Virus record (IMG/VR): IMGVR_UViG_3300010430_005130
Location: 1-44,666 of that record
Reading direction: 5' to 3' (one strand)
Source: a virus
DNA length: 44,666 nucleotides
Shown here: positions 2,290-20,098 of the stretch, one piece after another
Position numbering within the stretch: position 1 is the stretch's first letter
Layout: each line of letters starts with the position of its first letter
The notes under the pieces: model-generated
What the model saw: only the letters and a program-made list of their open reading frames with translations
The model's database searches: none
Told to the model about the DNA's origin: nothing
Program-made: the position numbers and the translations under genes

Positions 2290-3414
2290 TCACACCCACG
2301 CCAGACGCCGCGGGCCGATGAAATCCTCATCGGTGTTGCGCTTGCCCTGCAGGGTTAGCGGGTCGGGGAATTCCCAGCGGTGGGTTCGCACTTCATCGGC
2401 CAGGCCGGGCGAAGCGATCTTCGCGTAGCGTTCCGGCATGGCGGCGGTGGTCCAGCCGCCCTCATTGCGCAGGCGCAGGAGATTGCGCTCGCAGGCGAAA
2501 TGCCAGGTTGCCCAGGTATGCCGGGTGACATGCGCGGTGAAGACGCGCGGATCCAGATCCATCTGCGGCAGGGTGCGGTCGAGGAAGGCCTTGAGCTGGC
2601 CGCCGCGATCGTCGCGATCGGCATACGGCTGGCCGTCCTGCCGGCGGAAGAGCGGGCCGCGTTCGCCGATATTGGGCAGGCGGGACAGGGCAGCCTTGAC
2701 GCGCGGCTGCAGCCAGACCACGCGCTCGGCATCGGTCTTGGTGTCGCGCAGCACGGCATAGCCGTAATCCATGAAGAGATCGTCGCGGGCGTCGATCGAC
2801 AGGGTCTCGCCCATGCGTGTGCCCTGGCCGACAAGGAAGGTGATCAGGGCGGCACGCCAGGGCGGCGGCGCGGCCTTTCGAAAGCGCGCATGCGGCATGG
2901 CCCGGCGGATCAACTCCTCCACCTGGGCCGGCCGGAAATAGACCAGGCGCGGTTTCGATTGCGGGGGCAGGGTGAGCAGGATCGGCTGGCCGTACTTGCG
3001 CGTGACGGCACTGACGACGCTGTGAAACTGGCGCCGGCGGGTGGCCGGGGCGGCATTGGGGTAGGCGCGGACTGCGGCCGCATCCACGGCGGCCTGGTCG
3101 AGCGCATCCAGATGGGTTTGCTCGATCTGGTCCAGAACCTTGTCGAGAAACCGGCCGGAGCCGCCGCATTTGAGATAGTGCGCGGCGGCATCGCCGAACG
3201 TCTTGCGGGTGGTGAATTCGCCCGTGAAGTTCTGCTGGTTCAGCTGGGCTTCGAGTCTCGACTTGATCGCGAGCGCTGTCGCTTCGCAAGCAGTGCCCGT
3301 GCTTCGCTCTGGGAAGGGAACATTAACGGCGCGGCCATCGACAAATCGGGTAACCGTACCGCGGATGTAGAAGTTTGGGGACTTGTTGAGGTTCTGGTGC
3401 AGTCGGAGCGGCAT
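2290..3414 (-). CDS. int: Tyrosine-type site-specific integrase
   Basis: Catalyses integration and excision between attP and the tRNA-Ser attB. Numbered from the ATG at 3412-3414 (374 residues), the catalytic set is complete: Arg200 in GQGTRMGE, Lys226 after the beta turn, His295-x-x-Arg298 in HVTRHTWATW, Trp321 in the usual His/Trp position, and nucleophile Tyr330 in MPERYAKIA. The N-terminal part is an arm/core-binding domain rich in basic residues. A GTG at 3459 in the same frame could add 15 residues. The gene lies close to the attL tRNA fragment and is preceded by an excisionase-like gene that overlaps it, so the two are probably co-transcribed. Confidence 0.95.
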   Translation of the reverse strand: MPLRLHQNLNKSPNFYIRGTVTRFVDGRAVNVPFPERSTGTACEATALAIKSRLEAQLNQQNFTGEFTTRKTFGDAAAHYLKCGGSGRFLDKVLDQIEQTHLDALDQAAVDAAAVRAYPNAAPATRRRQFHSVVSAVTRKYGQPILLTLPPQSKPRLVYFRPAQVEELIRRAMPHARFRKAAPPPWRAALITFLVGQGTRMGETLSIDARDDLFMDYGYAVLRDTKTDAERVVWLQPRVKAALSRLPNIGERGPLFRRQDGQPYADRDDRGGQLKAFLDRTLPQMDLDPRVFTAHVTRHTWATWHFACERNLLRLRNEGGWTTAAMPERYAKIASPGLADEVRTHRWEFPDPLTLQGKRNTDEDFIGPRRLAWV

Positions 3415-3620
3415 GTCGCAAGTCTCTGAAGTTCTTTCAGCTGGCCGGGCGTCATGCACACGTCCCGGCCGACGCGGGTGAAGGCGGCCCCGTGCCTGCG
3501 GATCATGTCGCGGATCACCCGTTCTGGATGCGCAACGCTAGTGTTACCCGTTTCATCGATCAGGCGGAAGACCTGGGCGATTTCGTGCAGCGTGTAGAGG
3601 GTTACGGGAGCGCCCGGCAT
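3240..3620 (-). CDS. Excisionase-like small DNA-binding protein, long overlap with int
   Basis: The start ATG (3618-3620) has AAGGA 7 bases upstream. The first 70 residues (MPGAPVTLYTLHEIAQVF..., then RHGAAFTRVGRDVCMTPGQL) look like an excisionase/AlpA-type winged helix: a helix-turn-helix followed by a short hairpin with a basic Arg and a second helix. Such proteins bend DNA at attP and direct integrase to excision. The frame stays open for about 175 bases inside int, so the last ~57 residues are read from DNA that also encodes the integrase N-terminus. That tail is Ser/Thr/Arg-rich and may have little function. The excision role is inferred from size, fold and position. Confidence 0.65.
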   Translation of the reverse strand: MPGAPVTLYTLHEIAQVFRLIDETGNTSVAHPERVIRDMIRRHGAAFTRVGRDVCMTPGQLKELQRLATCRSDCTRTSTSPQTSTSAVRLPDLSMAAPLMFPSQSEARALLAKRQRSRSSRDSKPS

Positions 3621-4313: not shown

Positions 4314-6428
4314 TCATGCCGCACCGCCTTTCCCGGCCAGCATGGCCGTGACCGATTTCTTGATCGTGGCGGGGGACCCGAACGTCATTTCCGGCGGGCA
4401 CCAGCCGGGCTTGCGGCTGGTGTGTTCCATGATCCAGGCGATGGCCTCGGCCTTTTTCGCCGGCATGTCGCCGGCGGCCGCGCCGATGCCGCAGGCCCGG
4501 GCGATCTGGCGCAGCTGGGCAAGGGTGAAGGCGGCCAGATAGTCGGCCGTCAATTCGAATTCGGGCACAAGGTGGTCGACCCGCCTGGCCAGCTTGCGGG
4601 TGAAGTCGTCACAGCCCGGCCCGGGATTATAGCCCGGCCACACGCCGGCCTGGGCGGCGATGAGGGCGGTGAACACCGCGGCCACATCGTCAAATTCGGC
4701 CTCCATCAGCGTATCAACGGCGGCCGCATAATTGGACACCAGCACGGCCGGGACCTTGACCTTGAAGCCCTTCGGCTGGCCGTCCGGCGAGAGGGCGGCA
4801 ATGCGTTCGGCGACCACGGCAAAGAGCGGCACCTCGCCATCATGGGAATTGCGCGTCGGCCGCTGGAACCAGCTGCCCGGCGCGTCATAGCCCACGCCCA
4901 TATCGCGATCGATCAGGCCGGCGATGGTGAGCGCCATGGCCAGTTGCGGGCCGGCATCGGCCAAGCCTTGGCGCAGGCGTGCCGTGAGATCGAGGCTGGC
5001 AGCCAGCCAATTGCGCTTGGCAAAGGGCTGGATCGCCTCTTCCCTGACCTGGCCGCTGGCGGTTTCGGTGGTGGTCTTGATCGGCTGGGCGCCCGGCCCG
5101 CTGGTTTTCGGCTCGACGCGGCGCTCGTGGATGCGGCCGCACTCGAGCCAGAGCAGGGCACCGCACTCGGCCGGCGCCGCCTCGGCCGGTGCGTCGTGCC
5201 ATTGATGGCGCTTGTAGGGATCGTCGAGGATTTCCACAAAGGCGAAGCCTTCGGCCAGCAGCTCTTTACACCGCCGCTTGATCCAGCCCATGGAGAGGGT
5301 GGTGACCAGGGCCGTGTCGAGCAGGATCGTCTCGCCGGTCTCCTGGTCTTCCATGGTGGGGCCGGAATAGTCGGCCACATCGAAGCGGGCTTCGGAAACG
5401 GGCAGGCCCTTCTGGCGCAGGCTCTTGGCGATCTGGTCGGCGGTCGACCATCCGTGATAGCCATACTCCATTGACGAAAGCGCGTTGCGCTGCATCTCCG
5501 CCGGTGCGGTGCAGATGGCGCGGGCCTGGGCGAGGGTGATGCGGCTTTCGGACAGCGCGGTCTGCAGCTCCGGATCCAGATTGCTGACCAGGTTGAAGCG
5601 GATCTGCACCCACCGCTCGGTCTTGCCCATGGCAGCCGCCAACTCCTTGGTGGCCACACCTTCGGCGAGGCGGCGCTCATGCTTGATCTGGTCTTCGGTG
5701 AAACCCTTTTCGATGGGATCGCCCTTGTAGATCTCGGACAGGACCTGTCCGACCCGCAACTCGCGGAAGGCGGCGATGCCGCGGGCTTCCTCCATGGGCG
5801 GGGGATCCTTGCGGTCGCGGTTCTCGGCCAGGGCCACCAGCAACAGATCCTTGTCGGACATGGGCTGTACGAGGGCGCGCATGCCGTAGTCGGCCGGCAG
5901 GTCGCCGCGCTGGATGAGGAGGCCGGTGGCGCGCCAGCGCCGCTCGCCGGCGGCGATCTCGTATTCGCCCGGCTTTTCCGGGTGCGGGCGCAGCACAATG
6001 TTTTGCAAGAGGCCCTTTTCCGCGATCGACCCGGCGAGCTCGTCTAGCTCGGCCGCATCGAACGTCTTGCGCGGGTTCAGCGGCGAGGCGTGAATGAGAT
6101 TGTGCGGGATGGCCTGCTCGCCGCCTTCTGCCGGCGTGGCGCCGGCAGGATCGGCAGGGGCGGCCGGGCGTGCCTCGCCATTCCAGGCGTCCAGGATGGA
6201 CCGGGCCTTGTCGCTGATCGTCAGCGGGGAGAGCGAGATCAGGCCGGTGTCGGCCATGCGCTTGGTTGACCGTGTGACATTGGACGGGTCGCGCCCGAGG
6301 CGTTCGCCCATCTGGGTCCAGGGCAGGGCGGTGTCGCCCTGGCTGTTATCGGCCAGCTCGATCAGAAGGGCGATCAGCTGCGGATCGAAGAGGCGCAGGG
6401 CGTCGGCCGTGGGGGTGGAAGCGTTCAT
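4314..6428 (-). CDS. ParB-like DNA-binding protein with N-terminal winged helix (704 aa)
   Basis: Residues 1-80 resemble a MarR-type winged helix (GERLGRDPSNVTRSTKRMADTGLISLS). Residues about 105-230 are a ParB/Srx N-terminal domain with LNPRKTF, the GLLQNIVLRP segment, the CTP-box-like GERRWRA at 161-167, and a later ENRDRKDPPPMEEARG motif. A KorB/ParB-type helix-turn-helix follows near 275-300 (TKELAAAMGKTERWVQ). The C-terminal 400 residues are unrecognised, and the protein is about twice the length of a partition ParB. There is no ParA next to it, so a plasmid-like partition role is doubtful. Large ParB-domain proteins in phages more often act as regulators or modifiers of early DNA. The start overlaps the upstream gene by ATGA, so they form one operon. 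Confidence 0.85.
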   Translation of the reverse strand: MNASTPTADALRLFDPQLIALLIELADNSQGDTALPWTQMGERLGRDPSNVTRSTKRMADTGLISLSPLTISDKARSILDAWNGEARPAAPADPAGATPAEGGEQAIPHNLIHASPLNPRKTFDAAELDELAGSIAEKGLLQNIVLRPHPEKPGEYEIAAGERRWRATGLLIQRGDLPADYGMRALVQPMSDKDLLLVALAENRDRKDPPPMEEARGIAAFRELRVGQVLSEIYKGDPIEKGFTEDQIKHERRLAEGVATKELAAAMGKTERWVQIRFNLVSNLDPELQTALSESRITLAQARAICTAPAEMQRNALSSMEYGYHGWSTADQIAKSLRQKGLPVSEARFDVADYSGPTMEDQETGETILLDTALVTTLSMGWIKRRCKELLAEGFAFVEILDDPYKRHQWHDAPAEAAPAECGALLWLECGRIHERRVEPKTSGPGAQPIKTTTETASGQVREEAIQPFAKRNWLAASLDLTARLRQGLADAGPQLAMALTIAGLIDRDMGVGYDAPGSWFQRPTRNSHDGEVPLFAVVAERIAALSPDGQPKGFKVKVPAVLVSNYAAAVDTLMEAEFDDVAAVFTALIAAQAGVWPGYNPGPGCDDFTRKLARRVDHLVPEFELTADYLAAFTLAQLRQIARACGIGAAAGDMPAKKAEAIAWIMEHTSRKPGWCPPEMTFGSPATIKKSVTAMLAGKGGAA

Positions 6429-6784
6429 TGCGCGGCTCCCGGTTGGTCGGTGGTGTCCAGCGGGTCGCCATTGGCGTCGATCGGCACCAGATGGGCGAGG
6501 CTTTGAAAGTGAAGCTGGCCCGTGAAGGGTGAGGTGGTGAGCCGCACGCCGGCCTCGCCGGCGGCCAGGTCCATCTCCTCGATCCGGCCCTCGACTTCGC
6601 GGCGTTGCATCAGAAATGCGACGCGGCGGCCGACCACCAGGTATCCGGACAAGGGCGTGCGGCCCCCATCATTGGCGGCCGCCGAACGGCGTTCGCTGGC
6701 GTCGGGATGGAAAAGTGCCCGTACCGTGGGCGGCAGATCGCCGTCCTGCGTGCAGAATGCAGAAATATCGGGTTCGTAAGCCAT
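6425..6784 (-). CDS. Small early protein upstream of the ParB-like gene, unknown
   Basis: 119 residues from the ATG at 6782-6784, preceded on the mRNA by a strong GGAGG that lies in the 3' arm of a hairpin (6789-6807). Its stop overlaps the ParB-like start by ATGA, so the two are translated together. There is no membrane segment. The N-terminal half is acidic and the C-terminal half includes a beta-rich part (SGYLVVGRRVAFLMQRREVEG). One copy of the dispersed palindrome lies within the gene and encodes the E-R-R-S residues. It is the first gene of the leftward early transcript controlled by two repressor-type palindromes. Function unknown. Confidence 0.7.
   Translation of the reverse strand: MAYEPDISAFCTQDGDLPPTVRALFHPDASERRSAAANDGGRTPLSGYLVVGRRVAFLMQRREVEGRIEEMDLAAGEAGVRLTTSPFTGQLHFQSLAHLVPIDANGDPLDTTDQPGAAQ
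6683..6695. repeat. Dispersed palindrome CGAACGGCGTTCG, copy 1
   Basis: Perfect 13-bp odd palindrome (centre G on the plus strand) inside the leftward gene 6425-6784, read there as E-R-R-S. Confidence 0.85.
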
Positions 6785-6870: not shown

Positions 6871-7689
6871 TCAGTCTGCGATTGGGCCGTGCTCAAGCAG
6901 CCAATGCCAGAGCCCGTCAATCGGTACGGGCGTACCGTTGTGATGAAGCGCTACAACTTGATCGAGGTAGAATACCTTTTCGCCGGCCCATGCTCGTTTG
7001 TCCGCTGATGGTCGGCGTCGCGCGCTGGTTTGCAGGCGGATTCCGCGGTCAAATAGCTTCCATGTTGCATCGGAGACTTCAGCGTCGAAAGTTTCAGGCT
7101 CGTTGCTTGGGTGGCGCTGCCATTCGATTGTCAAGGCTAGAGGGGGCTCAAACTGGATTGTATGGTGCTGCGCAAGCTGCCAGATGTCTTTCGCAGCATT
7201 GGCGGGGGCGGCGGCCAATAGCCACTTCGGTACGTCGTCAATTACGACGCCATCCGCATCTACCAAGGATTCGATCTGATTGCCGGGAAAGGTCTTTTCG
7301 GAGTAGCGCTTGCCGCCACCTTTGGCTTCGCCAATAAGGCGATATTCGTCAGGGCGCTCTCCGATATCAACCATGTAAACGGTGACGGTGTAGTCGATCA
7401 GGCGACCTTCATCCCGACCGCGGTAGCGCTGAAAGTATTGAAGGTTGACTTGGCGAGGTGGCCGGACGGAGCGACGGTCCCAGCGAGGGCTAGACGGTTC
7501 CTGCGGATCCGGTTCCGGTGAGCCGAAATTCGTTGTGAGCTTGCCCGAAAATCGGATGGCGCGCCCTCCGACTTCGACCGTGGTTTCCCCCAGGTCGGTT
7601 ACCTTGGAGGTGGGGGCAGGTGCAGGGTTCCGCTCTGCCGAATAGGTGGAAGTCGATTGGCCGCCGAATATCCGCTGCCACCACTTCAT
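6871..7689 (-). CDS. Unknown protein co-transcribed with the repressor (272 aa)
   Basis: The ATG at 7687-7689 shares one base with the stop of the upstream repressor gene (TGATG), so translation is coupled. The product is a soluble protein with no signal peptide: a Pro/Ser-rich N-terminal linker, then a mixed alpha/beta domain. That domain contains a tract YTVTVYMVDIGERPDEYRLIG and a C-terminal part around WHWLLEHGP. Being in the lysogenic operon, it should be made in the prophage state, so a role in immunity, host fitness or exclusion is possible. No family recognised. Confidence 0.75.
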   Translation of the reverse strand: MKWWQRIFGGQSTSTYSAERNPAPAPTSKVTDLGETTVEVGGRAIRFSGKLTTNFGSPEPDPQEPSSPRWDRRSVRPPRQVNLQYFQRYRGRDEGRLIDYTVTVYMVDIGERPDEYRLIGEAKGGGKRYSEKTFPGNQIESLVDADGVVIDDVPKWLLAAAPANAAKDIWQLAQHHTIQFEPPLALTIEWQRHPSNEPETFDAEVSDATWKLFDRGIRLQTSARRRPSADKRAWAGEKVFYLDQVVALHHNGTPVPIDGLWHWLLEHGPIAD

Positions 7690-8072
7690 CAAGAACGGCC
7701 CCGCCGCTTACCAGATTCGCCGGGATCGTAGCCTGCCGGGTCCTCCGCGAAGCTTTCGGCAGTTCGAATGGCTTGATCGCGGCGATCCGCGGGGATCCTG
7801 GAAAAAATGGAAGCCCACTTGGTGTTGGTTGTGTTGGGGTCTCGGAATAGATCCGACACGGTGCAGCCATACACCTTCGCCATCGCCTCCAGATGGCGAC
7901 TGTTATAGTCGCGGCCCCGCTCGAGCTCGGACAGGTAGTTGCGTGAATATCCGAGGCGTTCGGCCGCCTGCTGTTGGGTGAGGCCGGCCTTCTTCCGCCA
8001 CTCGAAGAAGTAGACTTGTTTCTGGTCAGTGTCGTCGCTCATGGCGACATATTCCAGCGAAGCGGCATTCAT
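7689..8072 (-). CDS. XRE-family phage repressor (CI-like)
   Basis: About 127 residues from the ATG at 8070-8072; a second ATG at 8040-8042 would give 117. A canonical HTH_3 domain covers residues about 25-80 (WRKKAGLTQQQAAERLGYSRNYLSELERGR, then LEAMAKVYGCTVSDLF). There is no LexA/CI-type peptidase domain, so induction would not be by RecA-driven self-cleavage. It is divergent from a Cro-like gene 64 bases away, and the space between holds a perfect operator and half-sites. The start at 8072 lies about 10 bases after a possible -10 (TATCTG, minus strand) with no ribosome binding site, hinting at a nearly leaderless message. It is expected to repress both early promoters and itself. Confidence 0.85.
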   Translation of the reverse strand: MNAASLEYVAMSDDTDQKQVYFFEWRKKAGLTQQQAAERLGYSRNYLSELERGRDYNSRHLEAMAKVYGCTVSDLFRDPNTTNTKWASIFSRIPADRRDQAIRTAESFAEDPAGYDPGESGKRRGRS

Positions 8073-8076
8073 GTCG

Positions 8077-8138
8077 TCACACAGATAGCGACATTTGGCT
8101 TGACAGAAATGTCGCACATAGCGACATTTCGCGACATG
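8077..8138. promoter_or_regulatory. Divergent repressor/Cro control region with operator 8110-8126
   Basis: The core is TGTCGCACATAGCGACA (8110-8126), with arms extending to 9 bp (AAATGTCGC / GCGACATTT). Weaker sites are a half-site TAGCGACA ending at 8093 and GCGACA at 8131-8136. For rightward transcription TTGACA (8100-8105) is followed after 17 bases by GACATT (8123-8128), so the perfect operator covers the spacer and -10. The predicted start point falls at the ATG of the Cro-like gene. Confidence 0.75.
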
Positions 8139-10588: not shown

Positions 10589-11089
10589 ATGAGCGGACGG
10601 GTTGCCAAGCCGCCGGAATGCCGGGTCCTGGGCGCGGATGATTATGCCGCGCTGAAGAATGCCACCCGGCTGGCCTTCATGGATGCGGGCGGGCCGGAAC
10701 AATTCTTTGAGGAAACGCGTGCGGGCTCGGCCGAGACGCTGCGCAATTACATCAAGCATGAACAGCCGGCCTTTGCGCCCGTCGACGTGATCGCCGATGC
10801 CGAAAAGCGGGCGCGGCGGCCCTTTGTGACCGAAGCGCTGGCGCGGATTGCGGGCTTTCGCCTGATGCCGGTGGCGGCTTCGGTGACGGGCCGGGGCGTG
10901 ATGTTCGATGCTCTGCGCGAGGCCTGCGAGTTCGGCGCCCAGGCCAGCGAGGACCTGCGCGACGGCAAGGTGGATCGCCTCGAGGCGCCGGAATTCCTGA
11001 AAGCCCTGCGCGAGGCGCAGCGCGCCTTTGCCGCGGCCGAGGCCCAGCTGCTGGCCGATCATCCATTTTTGAAGGGGGAAGCGGAGTGA
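10589..11089 (+). CDS. Early protein of unknown function (166 aa)
   Basis: The ATG has GGAGG about 9 bases upstream. The product is soluble and helical: residues 15-65 contain ADDYAALKNATRLAFMDAGG and EETRAGSAETLRNYIKHEQ, which could be a diverged helix-turn-helix for a phage regulator. The C-terminal half is a long charged helix region. It is the first gene of a tightly packed rightward operon; its stop overlaps the next start (GTGA). Similar small proteins at this position in alphaproteobacterial prophages are regulatory, but I cannot assign a family. Confidence 0.7.
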   Translation: MSGRVAKPPECRVLGADDYAALKNATRLAFMDAGGPEQFFEETRAGSAETLRNYIKHEQPAFAPVDVIADAEKRARRPFVTEALARIAGFRLMPVAASVTGRGVMFDALREACEFGAQASEDLRDGKVDRLEAPEFLKALREAQRAFAAAEAQLLADHPFLKGEAE

Positions 11090-14414: not shown

Positions 14415-14891
14415 ATGTGTGATTGCCCCCTCTATCGTGCCCAGGCCGACATGCTGGCCGATCTGCGCGAACGCGTGGCGCACCTGGAGGCGTTGACCGA
14501 CCCGGCCGTGCCTTTCGCGCCCTGGGAATGGGCGCTGGACCGGCCGCAGGCCATCTTGGCCCATTGCCTGGCGCGCGGGCCTGTGGAGGCCGCACGGGCG
14601 GCGATGTCGCTGGATCTGGGCATGGGCGGCCGGTCGCATGATGCGCGCGCCGTGGCGGCGCTTGTGGCGGGGCTGGCCCATCGCTTGATCGACTGGGGCT
14701 GGCTGGTGCGATGCGGGACGCCTGAGGGCCGGCCGGCGCGCCTGTCCGACACGCATGCCCTGCACCCTGACCAGTTGACCGCCTTCCGGGCCGCCTTGCG
14801 CGGCGAGGGCGATCCCGGTGCGCCGCCCGTGGCGCACCGGCCGATCCCGCCGGGTGCGCGCGCCTATCGCCTAAAGGAGGCGGTTTCGTGA
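14415..14891 (+). CDS. Unknown early protein upstream of the replication initiator
   Basis: 158 residues from the ATG at 14415 (MCDCPLYRAQ). The first 30 residues suit a coiled coil (ADMLADLRERVAHLEAL). Residues 75-125 suit a winged-helix-like fold (VAALVAGLAHRLIDWGWLVR then RPARLSD). Its stop overlaps the initiator start (GTGA), so it is part of the replication operon and may be a partner or regulator of the initiator. Confidence 0.65.
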   Translation: MCDCPLYRAQADMLADLRERVAHLEALTDPAVPFAPWEWALDRPQAILAHCLARGPVEAARAAMSLDLGMGGRSHDARAVAALVAGLAHRLIDWGWLVRCGTPEGRPARLSDTHALHPDQLTAFRAALRGEGDPGAPPVAHRPIPPGARAYRLKEAVS

Positions 14892-16225
14892 GCCGGTTAT
14901 CCGTCATTCCGGTCGCGGCCCTGGATGATGTAGCCGAGAAGCGCATTTCCGCGACCGATCTGCGCGTCCTGTGCGGCTTGGGCGCCTGTACCAATAAATG
15001 GGGCTGGGCGAATGACACCAAGCAGGACCGGATCGCGAAGAAAGCCAAGCTGACGCGGGAGACGGTGAACCGTTCGCTGAACCGGCTTGAGAGTATGGGC
15101 TGGGTCGAGGTCTATGAAAGCCGTGACCCCATGGCCAAGCTCAAGGGGCTTCTGTGCTATCGCGTGATCCTGGACCCGCCCTTCGGCCCGTGCGGCGAGC
15201 GGCTGGAGTCGCCGACCTACAAGCGCCGCCGGGCTGTCCTGACGCCGGAGCAGGAGCGCCAGGCGCGGGCCGGCGAGGGTGAGGCGGAAGGCGTTCCGGA
15301 CGCGGACGATGATGCGGCCCACGATACTGGCGAGGCGGCAAATCCGGCCGTGCGCGAGGTGGCCGAACCGGCCGATGCCGTCGCGCACGGTCACGCCGGA
15401 CCATCGGGCCCGGATGACGGCGCGGATATGCCTTCCGTGCAAGGTCCGGACGCGACCCCCTGTGATCGACGCGTCACAGGGGGGGGTGTGACGGGTGGAT
15501 CACAGGGGGGGTGTGATCACTGCGATCACAGGGGGTGTGATCACTGCGATCACAGCAGAGTCGATTCTTTTATCGATAAGAGTTCTATGAGTACCAGTGC
15601 GCGCAGGATGACCCGCGGCAAGCGGGTGGCCGGCGTGTGGTTCGACCCCGCTGTCGAGCTGATGCCCGCCCTGGTCGAGGCCAAGGTCCGCGATGCGGTG
15701 ACGGCGCATCTGGTCGAAGGGCTCGGACAGGCGCGGGCCATAGCCGCCCTGTCGCCGGTGGATGTGCGCGCCTACCGGCATCACGGGTCGGAGCGCTGGG
15801 CCGTGGTCTGCCCCGATCGGGCCGGGTGGGAAGCCTTCCGGCAACACCTCGCCGGGCTCGGCAGTGCGCTGACGGACAGGACCGGAACGCGTGTCCAGGT
15901 CATGACCGAGGCCCGTTGGGCCCGTCTCACTGCGGAAATCACCATGCCCTACACGCCGCCGGACGGCGAGGCCGGGCGATTGTTCGACATGGCGCGGGAG
16001 TGCGGCCGGACGGAGACCGATCTGGCGCCCTGCGTCGAGGATGGCTTCGTCGTCGTGCCGGATCCGGAGCATGGCTTCGCCGTCCGGTCCACCGGCATGA
16101 ATAGCCGCGAGGTCGGCCGGGTCTTCATCGGCGCCATCAAGGCGCTGGGCTGGAACACAACCGTTCGCCCGCAAACGCCGGCCGAACGTCTCAAACCGAA
16201 GGAGGTCGCCCATGGGCAAGCTTGA
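14888..16225 (+). CDS. Phage replication initiator with internal origin (lambda O-like layout)
   Basis: 445 residues with GTG start overlapping the previous stop. Residues about 20-95 form a winged helix (KRISATDLRVLCGLGAC, DRIAKKAKLTRETVNRSL, RLESMGWVEV), the fold of replication initiators. Residues 110-215 are a disordered Ala/Asp/Gly linker, whose DNA from 15461 carries four TGTGA...TCACA repeats and an AT-rich stretch. The C-terminal domain (about 220-445) has unrecognised sequence, perhaps for a host or helicase partner. Initiators with the origin inside their own linker are known from lambdoid phages. No helicase or loader gene is seen, so host DnaB recruitment would be needed. Confidence 0.8.
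   Translation: MSRLSVIPVAALDDVAEKRISATDLRVLCGLGACTNKWGWANDTKQDRIAKKAKLTRETVNRSLNRLESMGWVEVYESRDPMAKLKGLLCYRVILDPPFGPCGERLESPTYKRRRAVLTPEQERQARAGEGEAEGVPDADDDAAHDTGEAANPAVREVAEPADAVAHGHAGPSGPDDGADMPSVQGPDATPCDRRVTGGGVTGGSQGGCDHCDHRGCDHCDHSRVDSFIDKSSMSTSARRMTRGKRVAGVWFDPAVELMPALVEAKVRDAVTAHLVEGLGQARAIAALSPVDVRAYRHHGSERWAVVCPDRAGWEAFRQHLAGLGSALTDRTGTRVQVMTEARWARLTAEITMPYTPPDGEAGRLFDMARECGRTETDLAPCVEDGFVVVPDPEHGFAVRSTGMNSREVGRVFIGAIKALGWNTTVRPQTPAERLKPKEVAHGQA
15456..15595. repeat. Candidate phage origin: four iterons plus AT-rich unwinding stretch
   Basis: Four copies of TGTGA-N8/9-TCACA at 15461-15478, 15487-15504, 15512-15530 and 15536-15554, spaced 24-26 bp centre to centre and separated by runs of 5-8 G. 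The last two share the fuller palindrome TGTGATC-ACTGC-GATCACA. Immediately right lies an AT-rich segment (15561-15595) containing two abutting GANTC sites (15558-15562 and 15563-15567). The layout, inside the initiator gene, matches a lambda-type ori. Confidence 0.75.
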
Positions 16226-16973
16226 GGCCACGCCAGCCATGCGGGAGGGGGTGACGGTGCAGGCGCAGCGCAAGGCCGATGAGCGGCCGGACGTGGCCGA
16301 TTACGAGGCCCGGGCGGACGAACGGCGTTCGGCGCGCCTGGAAGCCGAACGCAAGCGGCGTGAGGCCTTTCTCGCTTCGGCCGAAGGGCAGGCTGCGATG
16401 GGGCGTCTAGATGCCATGCGGCGGGCGGGCGAAGCCCTGCGATCGTCAACGCGCTATGCCGATATTGATACCTTCACGGCTGCCGTGCGGGGGATCGAGA
16501 TCGAGCGCGGGCAGGTTCGAATCCTTGCGCCGAATGCCTATGTGGCGCGGCTGTACGCCCCAGGCAATGGCAAGGGCGGGCTGCTCAAGCGTGAGCAGGT
16601 TGCGGCCGCGGCCGACTATGCCGCCCTGTCCGATCAGCTGAAGGTCGGCGGGGCCAGCCGCGATCCGGCCGACATCCGCGTCGACGGCGGCGGCGCGGGC
16701 TGTACCGAGCTGGCCGTCCTCAATCGGATGGATGCCGCCGACCGCTTCCGCCGTGCCCGCACCGCGCTCGAGCATGCGTCCATCGTGCCCGAATGGGGCC
16801 GGGTGATTCGCAGGCTGACCGACTGGATCGTGCTCGATGGCGGGCATCCAATGGAGGATTTCGACTTGGGAAGCCTGCCGCATGGCCGGGGCGTGAAGTC
16901 CGAGATGGCCTGCAAGGCAATGCTTCTCGCCCAGGGGCTGGGGACATTGTGTCAACACTTCGAGCGAGGCTAG
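16212..16973 (+). CDS. Candidate late regulator (Q-like position), unknown family
   Basis: 253 residues; starts 14 bases before the initiator stop. Residues 15-75 are highly charged and helical (ADERRSARLEAERKRREAF). The C-terminal part (about 170-253, ADRFRRARTALEHAS, then KSEMACKAMLLAQGLGTL) looks like the helical C-terminal segment of small phage/host DUF6456-type proteins. It is followed within one base by a promoter and then a terminator, and after that by the terminase genes. This is the place of an antiterminator such as lambda Q, so late-gene control is inferred from context only. Confidence 0.65.
   Translation: MGKLEATPAMREGVTVQAQRKADERPDVADYEARADERRSARLEAERKRREAFLASAEGQAAMGRLDAMRRAGEALRSSTRYADIDTFTAAVRGIEIERGQVRILAPNAYVARLYAPGNGKGGLLKREQVAAAADYAALSDQLKVGGASRDPADIRVDGGGAGCTELAVLNRMDAADRFRRARTALEHASIVPEWGRVIRRLTDWIVLDGGHPMEDFDLGSLPHGRGVKSEMACKAMLLAQGLGTLCQHFERG
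16319..16331. repeat. Dispersed palindrome CGAACGGCGTTCG, copy 3
   Basis: Perfect 13-bp palindrome, centre G, within the gene 16212-16973, read in frame as E-R-R-S. Confidence 0.85.
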
Positions 16974-17013
16974 TTGACATCCAAGGTCCTAGGATATTAT
17001 CGATTTGTCCTAG
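16974..17013 (+). promoter_or_regulatory. Late promoter candidate with twin GTCCTAG boxes
   Basis: TTGACA (16974-16979) is followed by TATTAT (16995-17000), a spacing of 15 bases; shifting the -10 by a base or two gives 16-17. Direct repeats GTCCTAG at 16986-16992 and 17007-17013 are 21 bp apart, two helical turns, and bracket the -10. They are suited to binding by an activator, repressor or antiterminator. Confidence 0.6.
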
Positions 17014-17035
17014 ATGAGGTCATTGCGCCTCGCCA

Positions 17036-17068
17036 AGCCCCGCCGGCCACCGCCTCGCGGGGCTTTTT
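17036..17068 (+). terminator. Rho-independent terminator just after the late promoter
   Basis: Arms AGCCCCGC (17036-17043) and GCGGGGCT (17057-17064) form an 8-bp perfect stem, followed by a short T run (17064-17068). A transcript from the promoter at 16974 would end after only about 60 nt unless the polymerase is modified. Confidence 0.8.
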
Positions 17069-17217
17069 CATGCCCGAAACCCAACAAATCAACACGTTAG
17101 CGGGTCCTTCCCAGAGCTTCCGCGGATACGGGGCATCTGAGCGCGGAGCTTTTGAACACACAGGGCCCGTCAACATTGTTGACGTTTCGGGGCTAACTCG
17201 TTGACAGAACAGGAGGC

Positions 17218-17940
17218 TTGCCAGCGCTGCCGGTGGCACGATCACCGATGACTGATGTTCCGCTGCTTGACCGAAAACTGCCCGACGGGGCGCCGGCGTT
17301 TTTTGGGACTGTGGCCGCGTACGGCAAGGCGAGGGGTGTTTCCCGTCAGGCGGCCAGCCAGTGGAACAAGCGGGACGGACACATCGTCTTTGCCGTGTGC
17401 CCTGTTACCGGCAAGCGGGTGATCGATGCGGCGGCAAGCGATGAACGCCGAACGGGCAACCAGAACCCGTTGAAGCGTCAGGCCACTGCACCTGTCGCAC
17501 CGGATCCGGCCGAAGATTTGTTCGAGGAGCCGGCGGCGCAGGAGCAGGACAAACCGGCGAAGCCGGTGCCGGTCGACGATCCCTACAAGCGCAGCGCCGC
17601 CGAAGCTGTCAGCCGCGATAAATGGCTGGCACTGCGACAGCGCGAGCTGAAGGTGCGGCAGGAAATGGGCGAGCTCGCCCGCTTTCAGGATCTGCAAGAC
17701 TCGCTCTTCCAGGCAATGCGGCGGGTCCGCGATGCCATGCAGAGTGTGGCTTCGGAGTGCTGTGAACGCGCAAACCCGGATGATCCGGCGACGGCGCGCC
17801 GGGCGATCCAGGCCGAGATCGACAAGAAGCTCACAGCCGTCGCGATCGAAGTCGAACGGGTTCTTTCCGGCGCCGATACGGCCGAACTCCCCGAGATCGG
17901 CGCAGCGCCCGAGGCGGAAGGCGCCTTGGAAGATGCCTGA
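17218..17940 (+). CDS. Terminase small subunit (Nu1-like)
   Basis: About 230-240 residues. The start is unsure: AGGAGG (17211-17216) is too close to the TTG at 17218 and fits a CTG at 17227; the first ATG is 17248. An N-terminal helix-turn-helix (AYGKARGVSRQAASQWNK) recognises the cos/pac site. A Pro/Ala-rich linker and a helical region with many charged residues follow, for oligomerisation and contact with the large subunit. The stop overlaps the large-subunit start by 8 bases. Residues D-E-R-R-T come from a degenerate copy of the dispersed palindrome (17442-17454). Confidence 0.8.
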   Translation: MPALPVARSPMTDVPLLDRKLPDGAPAFFGTVAAYGKARGVSRQAASQWNKRDGHIVFAVCPVTGKRVIDAAASDERRTGNQNPLKRQATAPVAPDPAEDLFEEPAAQEQDKPAKPVPVDDPYKRSAAEAVSRDKWLALRQRELKVRQEMGELARFQDLQDSLFQAMRRVRDAMQSVASECCERANPDDPATARRAIQAEIDKKLTAVAIEVERVLSGADTAELPEIGAAPEAEGALEDA

Positions 17941-20098
17941 CGGTACACCGCCCGGCGATGTCTTTGACTTCGCGCCCTGGCCAGAGTTTGAGGCACATCT
18001 GAGCAAGCAGGCCGAAGCCTTCGGCGCAATGGTGCGAGAGGCGCTGACGCCTGACCCGCCCTTCAGCCTGCTGGCCTGGACGTGCGAAAACCGGGTATTC
18101 GATGAGATGTCATCGAACCCGGGCCTGTACGATCCGGACACGGCGCCCTACTGCAATGAACCGATCGACGCGCTCTCGCCGGGCATGGGCGTCGAGGAAA
18201 TGTCGGTCATCAAGTGCGCCCAGTCGGGCGGCACGGTTATCTTGGAGAGCTTCAAGGCCGGGCTGCTGTCATCCGTGGCGGCGCCGGCGATGCTGGTTCA
18301 CCCGACAATCCGGGCATTCGAGGACTGGGCCGAAGAGAAGTGGTGGCCGCTGGTCTACTCCACCCCCGCTCTTGACCCGGACCGGGGCGGGGCGGTTCGC
18401 GACCGCACAGACAAGAAGTCCGGCGGTTCGACTAGCAAGCGGATCCGCTTTCGCAAGGGCGGCTGGATCGTCGGCGCTGGATCCAATTCCGCTGCGACGC
18501 TGCGTCAGAAGTCGATCCGTTTCATGGCACTCGACGATCTCGACGGGTTCGAGATGTCGGCTGCCGAGGAAGGGGATCCGGAGAACCTGGCGCATCAGCG
18601 CACGAAGACATACCGCCGTCGCGGTCTGGCTGTGACGCTTCGGGTGTCCACACCGCTCCTGGAAGGCTCTTCCAGGATCATGAAGCACTACGCGAATTCG
18701 GACATGCGGCGGTTCTATCACCGCTGCAAGAATGCCGAGTGCCGGTCCCTTATCGATTTCGACTGGGAAGACATTATCCGCGAAAAGCGGCCGCCTTACC
18801 GGTCCCATGTCGTGTGCCCATCCTGTGGGACGGAACATCGGCACGGCGACAAACATCGGATGCAGATCGACGGCGCGTGGATACCCACAGCCGAGATCGA
18901 AGGAGAACACGACCAGGACGGCGTTACCAAGCCGCCCAAAGTGATCGAAGCGGCTGACGTCGAGCGTTGGCGCACCCGTGACATGAAGCACCTGGCCAAG
19001 CACCGGGGCTACTGGATCACGGGTTTCATGAACTTTGCCGAGACTTGGGACTCGATCGCGGAAGCCGAGGACCGGGCGGGCAAAGACCAGGAAGCCCTCA
19101 AGGTGTTCAACAACACTGTGCTGGGCCGGCCATTCAAGATCGCGTCGAAAACGCCGAAATGGGAAGAGCTGTACGGGATACGCAGCGAGAGCTTCCGCCG
19201 CGGCGAAGGTGCGAACGGTCCCTGCGTCTTCACCTTGTCGGTGGATGTTCAGTCGTATGGTCTCTACTGGCTGGCCAAGGGCTACAACGCCAATGAGGAG
19301 GGCTGGTATCTCGATTGGGGTCTGATTCCCGGGGAAACCGCTATCAAGGGCGATGGCGCCTGGAAGGAGCTCGACAAGATCGCCGATCGCGGTGCGCCTC
19401 TGGCACCGGGGGTCTACATCCCGTTCGACGTGATAGGGGTCGATGGCGGCTACAATACGGATGCCGTGAAGGAGTGGGCCAAGCACCGGCCGTTGGCCAT
19501 CGTCACAAAGGGTGACCCGGGCTGGGGCGCCGACATCATCAAGCTGGCCCGTCGCACCGAGGTTTCTCAGACCGGCCGCAAGAAAAAGTATGGCGAGCGG
19601 GTCTGGCACATTTCCACCTGGTCAGCGAAAGGCGCGTTGATCGCGCGCTACTACCGCTCGGTCGAGGTCGGTGCGATAGACGAGACTGGCGTGCCGAAGG
19701 GGTATTGCTGGCTGCCGATGAATGTGGATGAGGCCTTTTGCCGGCAGCTGACATCGGAATTCCTGCACTCCGAGCGCCGCAAGATCGATAATCTGCTGGT
19801 CCGGAAATGGGTGGTGAAGTCGGGCGAGGAAAACCACCTCTTCGACTGCGATGTGATCAGCTTTGCCGGGATCTGCTACCTGGGCGCTCGCGCACCGGGC
19901 GATCGCGGTTCCTGGACGCTGGAAGACTGGGTCGAACGCGAAGAACGCGTCCGCGCGATGCTGGATCGCGACCAGCAAGACCTGTTTGACCATGCGCGGC
20001 GCCGGCCATCTGCGCCGGCGGAAAGCGCGGCCATACCGGCCAAGTCTTCGGAATTGCCCACCGCCCTCCTGCGGATGGCGCAGCAGAATCGCGACTGA
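17933..20098 (+). CDS. terL: Terminase large subunit, lambda gpA family
   Basis: 721 residues from the ATG at 17933. It is the ATPase/nuclease motor that cuts and packages DNA. The gpA-type adenine/Walker A region lies near 91-101 (SVIKCAQSGGT, the degenerate P-loop usual in gpA). Walker B is at about 198-204 (MALDDLD). A zinc-finger-like insert has C265, C270, C295 and C298. The RNase H-like nuclease half begins near 400 (TLSVDVQ) with DVIGVDGGYNTDAV and a C-terminal DCDVISFA. Length and order fit GpA terminases, which points to cos-type packaging. The next expected gene, W, is displaced 2.6 kb by an insertion. Confidence 0.95.
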   Translation: MPDGTPPGDVFDFAPWPEFEAHLSKQAEAFGAMVREALTPDPPFSLLAWTCENRVFDEMSSNPGLYDPDTAPYCNEPIDALSPGMGVEEMSVIKCAQSGGTVILESFKAGLLSSVAAPAMLVHPTIRAFEDWAEEKWWPLVYSTPALDPDRGGAVRDRTDKKSGGSTSKRIRFRKGGWIVGAGSNSAATLRQKSIRFMALDDLDGFEMSAAEEGDPENLAHQRTKTYRRRGLAVTLRVSTPLLEGSSRIMKHYANSDMRRFYHRCKNAECRSLIDFDWEDIIREKRPPYRSHVVCPSCGTEHRHGDKHRMQIDGAWIPTAEIEGEHDQDGVTKPPKVIEAADVERWRTRDMKHLAKHRGYWITGFMNFAETWDSIAEAEDRAGKDQEALKVFNNTVLGRPFKIASKTPKWEELYGIRSESFRRGEGANGPCVFTLSVDVQSYGLYWLAKGYNANEEGWYLDWGLIPGETAIKGDGAWKELDKIADRGAPLAPGVYIPFDVIGVDGGYNTDAVKEWAKHRPLAIVTKGDPGWGADIIKLARRTEVSQTGRKKKYGERVWHISTWSAKGALIARYYRSVEVGAIDETGVPKGYCWLPMNVDEAFCRQLTSEFLHSERRKIDNLLVRKWVVKSGEENHLFDCDVISFAGICYLGARAPGDRGSWTLEDWVEREERVRAMLDRDQQDLFDHARRRPSAPAESAAIPAKSSELPTALLRMAQQNRD

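What the first reader, a model, noticed from the sequence alone, without database searches (positions are those of the whole stretch)
16212..17068. Candidate Q-type late switch: gene, promoter, twin boxes, terminator, then terminase
A promoter begins right after the 253-residue gene and would give only a ~60-nt RNA ending at a strong terminator; terminase follows. This is the pR'-tR' layout of lambda. GTCCTAG boxes 21 bp apart bracket the -10, where a Q-like factor could bind. The protein is not of a known Q family that I can recognise.
Basis: partly seen in the sequence, partly recalled or inferred. Interest (0 to 1): 0.6.

Follow-up and report, generated by a model that had tools for sequence, protein, structure and literature searches.

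The report
Phage late-gene antitermination switch, GafZ-like
This bacterial virus appears to switch on its late genes with an anti-termination protein that is a distant relative of GafZ, the regulator of gene transfer agents, and that reads a small DNA palindrome hidden in the promoter just behind its own gene; the palindrome and a short stretch of the protein change together between related viruses.

Summary
A -35 TTGACA follows the stop codon of a 253-residue gene (P); a terminator ends about 57 nt past the likely start site; terminase follows. The order initiator > P > TTGAC > hairpin terminator (> cos-like block) > terminase is kept in about ten relatives, mostly Maricaulis-type phages.

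Corrected points: the twin GTCCTAG boxes are not conserved. The first lies inside a 17-bp palindrome (16979-16995) in the -35/-10 spacer. Most divergent relatives have a palindrome at the same centre but of different sequence (0 of 20,000 shuffle sets as good). The -10 is weak, and no sigma-pause element is visible.

P matches no known Q family. Profile comparison makes its C-terminal half a distant relative of GafZ (DUF6456), the Caulobacter GTA antiterminator whose binding palindrome also lies between -35 and -10. Against a near-twin phage, 8 of P's 14 amino-acid changes fall in residues 221-232, and the spacer core changes with them; two other phages show the reciprocal combination.

Best reading: a Q-like late switch run by a phage relative of GafZ that reads the spacer palindrome. 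Antitermination itself is inferred; no RNA or protein data exist. The block between terminator and terminase is probably cos.

The parts
16212..16973 (+). P: 253-aa Q-like/GafZ-like antiterminator candidate; overlaps the end of the O-like initiator gene
   Evidence: ORF; homologs of 24-94% identity over the aligned length in the same position between initiator and terminase; C-terminal ~140 aa match GafZ/DUF6456 by hhalign
16872..16907 (+). codons 221-232 of P: putative DNA-specificity segment at the N-terminal edge of the last helix
   Evidence: 8 of 14 aa differences between window P and L002 P fall here, against 1 in residues 1-220; residues 229-230 are KS in window/L013 and NE in L002/L004; it precedes/enters the last predicted helix
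16974..16979 (+). -35 element TTGACA of the putative late promoter (pR'-like)
   Evidence: TTGAC at this place in all 11 loci
16979..16995 (+). 17-bp imperfect palindrome ATCCaAGG-T-CCTaGGAT, putative binding element of P (equivalent of QBE/ZBE)
   Evidence: 7 of 8 arm pairs, shuffle p 0.004 for the window alone; summed over 8 phages 47 against 27.4 +/- 2.6, 0/20000; centre scan peaks at 8.0 nt after the -35
16998..17003 (+). weak -10 candidate (TATCGA, 18-bp spacer) in the register shared by relatives; alternative TATTAT 16995-17000 (15-bp spacer) is not conserved
17015..17032 (+). RNA hairpin 1 (GAGGU..GCCUC) at the 5' part of the short RNA
   Evidence: predicted in all relatives; one two-sided change (G-C to A-U, L003) and one-sided changes, compared by eye
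17035..17068 (+). tR'-like intrinsic terminator, stem 17035-17043/17057-17065, T-run 17064-17068
   Evidence: fold; stem sequence changes on both sides between clades
17098..17148 (+). cos-like block TTAGCGGGTCCTTCC...CGCGGATACGGGGCATCTGAGCG: packaging site candidate, not part of the switch
   Evidence: conserved in the P phages and present in L065, a phage fragment where it also lies just before a GpA-type terminase but with no P gene in the ~1 kb available upstream
17248..17940 (+). terminase small subunit (first late gene); ORF also open from TTG 17218
   Evidence: phrog_57 E 1.4e-8
17732..20098 (+). ORF holding the terminase large subunit (GpA family)
   Evidence: PF05876 and PF20454, phrog_15
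14888..16225 (+). O-like replication initiator upstream of P
   Evidence: HTH_36, phrog_270

Best explanation
P is the late-gene processive antiterminator of a lambda-like temperate phage of Maricaulis-type bacteria. P binds, probably as a dimer through its C-terminal helix-turn-helix-like end, to a palindrome in the spacer between -35 and -10 of the late promoter directly behind its own gene. RNA polymerase starts there by default and stops after roughly 57 nt at the hairpin terminator; with P loaded at the promoter it reads through into cos, terminase and the virion genes. The protein is a distant relative of GafZ, the antiterminator of the Caulobacter gene transfer agent. Unlike the GTA promoter, which has a degenerate -35 and needs GafY, this promoter has a near-consensus -35 and the window has no GafY-type DnaA domain. 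Shown: gene, synteny, palindrome, terminator, remote homology, co-variation. Inferred: promoter activity, binding, loading on polymerase, read-through.
For: Same order initiator > P > TTGAC > hairpin(s) > cos-like block > terminase in all relatives whose flanks are available. Spacer palindrome centred 8 nt after the -35 in divergent phages, each with its own sequence; 0/20000 shuffle sets as good. P family versus GafZ/DUF6456: hhalign E 2.1e-6, prob 89; best of 100 column shuffles 0.01, reversed 0.5-0.6; reciprocal best among 62 natural families, next best 0.05 and 0.019. GafZ is an antiterminator with a sigma-like HTH and a palindromic element between -10 and -35 (PMC11150451). Coupled change: window and L002 are identical over 110 residues before the segment but differ in the segment and in the spacer core; L004/L013 (93/110) show the reciprocal combination; cores window=L013 AGGTCCT, L002=L004 ACCGGGT. 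Lambda-like surroundings: integrase, cI-like, CII-like, O-like genes.
Against: No transcript or protein data. The -10 is weak in most relatives and no TANNNT pause element follows. L002, L004 and L013 have only a short palindromic core, not significant alone. L015/L016/L018 have a strong hairpin but no clear U-run. HMM search with DUF6456 alone does not find P; the homology rests on profile-profile comparison, and the second P clade alone gives only E 0.011. Structure search found no solved antiterminator or sigma HTH. The segment-core link rests on four phages.
Confidence: 0.72

Rival explanations
1. P is a conventional activator (or autoregulator) of the late promoter that binds the spacer palindrome, and the terminator merely ends the early operon; no antitermination.
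For: Palindrome and co-variation show DNA recognition only. GafZ loss also lowered a terminator-less GTA reporter about fourfold (PMC11150451). The weak -10 fits a promoter that needs help.
Against: A terminator directly after the promoter, and before the first late gene, would defeat a plain activator; the relation is kept in the relatives examined. The nearest studied relative is an antiterminator.
Confidence: 0.15
2. There is no promoter: TTGAC is one of a set of GTTGAC sites for another protein (for example terminase small subunit or a phage regulator), and the hairpin is the end of the early transcript.
For: GTTGAC clusters here: 5 of the window's 14 copies lie in 16951-17205; a GTCAA...TTGAC inverted pair straddles the P stop in all loci; the -10 is poorly conserved.
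Against: Does not explain the spacer palindrome at fixed distance, its co-variation with P, or the homology of P to GafZ.
Confidence: 0.08
3. Antitermination acts through the nascent RNA: hairpin 1 is a nut- or put-like element, and P or the RNA itself modifies polymerase.
For: Hairpin 1 is predicted in all loci.
Against: No Rfam family fits (best two are far below gathering score); the loop is not conserved; the specificity co-variation is with DNA upstream of the transcript.
Confidence: 0.05

Closest known systems
GafZ / C-terminal part of GafA (DUF6456, PF20057), GTA antiterminator of Caulobacter crescentus (PMC11150451)
   Same: Collinear C-terminal ~140 aa by profile comparison; binding palindrome between -35 and -10; sits before a block of virion genes; terminator to be passed downstream
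   Different: P is not found by the DUF6456 model, has another N-terminal half, is phage-encoded next to its target, has no GafY partner in the window, and has a near-consensus -35; the GTA terminator lies after the first gene, here it lies before it
Lambda-type Q proteins (PF03589, PF06530, PF06323) and pR'-tR'
   Same: Gene position, promoter-terminator-late gene order, binding element position
   Different: No sequence family match; no visible sigma-pause element; cos and terminase rather than lysis genes follow directly
AlpA of Pseudomonas aeruginosa (PMC9371919)
   Same: Element between -10 and -35, read-through of a promoter-proximal terminator
   Different: AlpA element is a single 6-bp site; the proteins are not related by any search here

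Membership tests
Known phage Q families (PF03589, PF06530, PF06323) | sequence match to a Q family model | tested here: not met
   no Pfam hit up to E 1 for P; A3 members hit only two unrelated families weakly
Q-type late switch (functional kind) | gene followed by promoter, short leader, terminator, late genes | tested here: met
   layout in sequence only; promoter activity untested
Q-type late switch (functional kind) | protein-binding DNA element in the promoter spacer | tested here: inconclusive
   conserved-position palindrome and co-variation with the protein support it; binding itself untested
Q-type late switch (functional kind) | -10-like sigma-dependent pause element in the first transcribed bases | tested here: not met
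   no TANNNT in any of 11 loci; degenerate elements not excluded
Q-type late switch (functional kind) | read-through of terminators that depends on the protein | not testable with these tools
   needs a reporter or RNA end mapping
GafZ / DUF6456 | match to PF20057 over its cut-off | tested here: not met
   no hit in the window up to E 10
GafZ / DUF6456 | homology by profile-profile comparison | tested here: met
   E 2.1e-6; shuffles and reversals; reciprocal best of 62 families
GafZ / DUF6456 | GafY (DnaA-like domain) partner | tested here: not met
   no PF08299 match in the window; the record may be incomplete
GafZ / DUF6456 | sigma-like helix-turn-helix fold | tested here: inconclusive
   model of residues 105-253 pLDDT 78, pTM 0.75, helix pair around the segment, but no PDB match

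The most novel reading that the evidence does not exclude
A phage family of Q-type antiterminators, homologous to the GTA regulator GafZ and without a convincing match in Pfam, PHROGs or NCBIfam, whose DNA specificity is set by a short segment at the last helix and has been exchanged between phages together with the promoter palindrome. It would show the kind of phage switch from which GTA control was domesticated.
Probability: 0.55. Interest if true: 0.72.

Novelty: new variant of a known kind. Interest (0 to 1): 0.6.

Why it matters
How GafZ loads and where GTA control came from are open questions. A compact phage system with the antiterminator next to its target, a near-consensus -35, no GafY in the window, and natural pairs that differ in specificity would make both testable. 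One relative lies in Maricaulis maris strain DSM 4734, so experiments are possible. No paper in the held library that mentions GafZ or DUF6456 describes such a phage protein in its title or listed abstract (most were not read in full).

Tried and rejected
Twin GTCCTAG boxes as the binding site: not conserved. TATTAT as -10: 15-bp spacer, absent in relatives. Close homologs in annotated phage genomes: none. Homologs in genome contigs with P alone: none; with the alignment, two Maricaulis. Solved-structure sequence search: nothing. Full-length model: low confidence (pLDDT 69.6), meaningless matches. Weak DUF4407, Red1 and CheD hits ignored, as was the weak phrog_21451 hit (0.0017, unknown function). 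Hits L029 and L030 from the order-wide search looked spurious: the open frames there are unrelated proteins. Two-mismatch cos motif hits L069/L070 appear to lie in unrelated coding DNA. Rfam: two matches far below gathering score. MAFFT alignment A5 slips in hairpin 1 because loop lengths differ; stems were compared by eye, so no covariation count is claimed. In some searches my terminase-small query for the window began one base out of frame; its identities are not used, and one search replaces that control.

Full report
WHAT IS THERE. The window is an IMG/VR virus record of 44,666 bases with a lambda-like order of genes: integrase (2290-3459, minus), ParB-like (4314-6428, minus) and a cI-like regulator (7689-8117, minus); a CII-like gene (10589-11086), an O-like initiator (14888-16225), P (16212-16973) and terminase; then portal, protease, decoration, major head and tail genes. 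TTGACA follows the P stop codon directly (16974-16979). A hairpin with a T-run ends at 17068; the 61-nt RNA 17009-17069 folds at -28.8 kcal/mol, z -2.95.

RELATIVES. P has no match in the annotated phage collection, but alignment searches found it in IMG/VR contigs and in Maricaulis genomes, and two more loci turned up in an order-wide search (L027, L028). Identity to window P falls from 94% to 24% over the aligned length. Where flanks exist, P lies between an O-like initiator or another upstream replication-type gene and terminase; in L014, L015, L016 and L027 a ParB-domain-like gene (my reading of the sequence) is inserted before terminase small. The family is narrow: 3 believable genomes of 398 in the order (L026, L027, L028), and in 385 of the class only the Maricaulis genome already known.

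THE PROMOTER. All 11 loci keep TTGAC next to the P stop. The GTCCTAG pair is not conserved and the box count in the window is at chance level.

THE SPACER PALINDROME. The window's spacer holds ATCCaAGG-T-CCTaGGAT (16979-16995). Relatives hold other palindromes at the same centre: ATCCAAA-CAG-TTTGGAT (L003), CTAAAc-CGG-tTTTAG (L014), CCGAA-GG-TTCGG (L015), CGAACGTTCG (L016, L018), CAAAgGACgTTTG (L005), GCAAAT-ACCC-ATTTGC (L028). Summed over eight phages the number of paired positions is 47 against 27.4 +/- 2.6 in shuffled spacers (0 of 20,000 sets reach it), and a scan of centres peaks sharply at 8.0 nt after the -35. L002, L004 and L013 have only a short core (ACCGGGT or AGGTCCT). Centre conserved but sequence changing is what a co-evolving protein site should look like.

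WHAT P IS. P has no Pfam hit to Q families or anything else of note. I noticed a resemblance of its C-terminal end to DUF6456 and tested it. DUF6456 (PF20057) is found in Caulobacter vibrioides and in GafA-type proteins (PMC9638019). Twenty-three such proteins from Caulobacterales-type genomes were aligned and compared with the P family: E 2.1e-6, probability 89, 140 columns, collinear to the C-terminus. Reversed alignments give 0.5-0.6; the best of 100 column shuffles gives 0.01. Among 62 natural families built from the same loci, GafZ/DUF6456 is the best non-self match of P (4.3e-5, next 0.05) and P the best of GafZ (3.6e-6, next 0.019). The direct HMM search with PF20057 does not see P, and the second P clade alone is only marginal (0.011), so this is remote homology, not membership. 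GafZ is described as an antiterminator that needs a palindrome between -10 and -35 of the GTA promoter and has a predicted sigma-like HTH (PMC11150451). The model of P residues 105-253 (pLDDT 78, pTM 0.75) puts a helix pair at the C-terminus, but Foldseek finds nothing in the PDB.

PROTEIN-DNA CO-VARIATION. Window P and L002 P differ by one residue in 1-220 (with most of the 39 synonymous codon changes lying there), but by eight in 221-232; the spacer DNA is also replaced, while the terminator and hairpin 1 are identical. Over the 110 residues before the segment, window and L002 are identical and L004 and L013 share 93; yet the 7-bp core is shared by window and L013 (AGGTCCT) and by L002 and L004 (ACCGGGT), and residues 229-230 follow the core (KS, KS; NE, NE). 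Overall segment identity supports this only mildly (8 and 8 of 17 for core-sharing pairs against 4 and 6 across). Four phages are few, and recombination can move both pieces together, but the two divergent patches are separated by a conserved stretch, which argues for a functional link.

HOW IT PROBABLY WORKS. Polymerase starts at the late promoter, makes a short two-hairpin RNA and stops. P, made late in the early operon, binds the spacer palindrome, joins polymerase and lets it pass the terminator into cos and the virion genes. In the Caulobacter GTA the -35 is degenerate and GafY/IHF recruit polymerase; a consensus -35 removes that need (PMC11150451). The phage has the near-consensus -35, and no DnaA-type GafY domain is found in the window. 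Promoter activity, binding and read-through are inferences.

THE REST OF THE INTERVAL. Between terminator and terminase lies TTAGCGGGTCCTTCC...GGATACGGGGCATCTGAGCG. The IMG/VR scan for CGTATACGGGGCRTCTNAGCG found 10 contigs; nine carry P and the tenth (L065) has the block immediately before a GpA-type terminase without a P gene in the ~1 kb upstream. It is therefore best read as a packaging (cos) site, with GTTGAC repeats near the terminase start as possible terminase-binding sites; this is inference.

VERDICT. New variant of a known kind, interest 0.6.

Noticed in passing
window 17098-17148: Strongly conserved cos-like block between terminator and terminase, also in L065, a phage fragment with no P gene in the available upstream ~1 kb.
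   Followed up: partly
window 16951-16978: Inverted pair GTCAA-N18-TTGAC straddling the P stop codon, kept in all 11 loci with 17-20 or 8 bp between the arms (about one helical turn apart); the coding part uses the rarer CAA codon (52 CAA against 204 CAG in 12 window ORFs).
   Followed up: partly
window 17169-17205: Further GTTGAC repeats before terminase; 5 of 14 copies in the window lie in 16951-17205.
   Followed up: no
window 15455-15554: Tandem 24-nt repeats GGGGGTGTGATCACTGCGATCACA and related inverted repeats inside the O-like gene, as in a lambda-type replication origin.
   Followed up: partly
L002 5001-8848: L002 is near-identical to the window in P (96%) but only about 48% in terminase large: a mosaic junction lies past the cos-like block.
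   Followed up: no
L015, L016, L018 at 6550-6624: The hairpin at the terminator position has a strong stem but no clear U-run, so termination there may differ.
   Followed up: no
L024 638-1848: The Maricaulis maris genome has adjacent ORFs resembling GafY (DnaA-like, my reading) and GafZ (DUF6456) in addition to the prophage P gene, so both systems may coexist in one cell.
   Followed up: no
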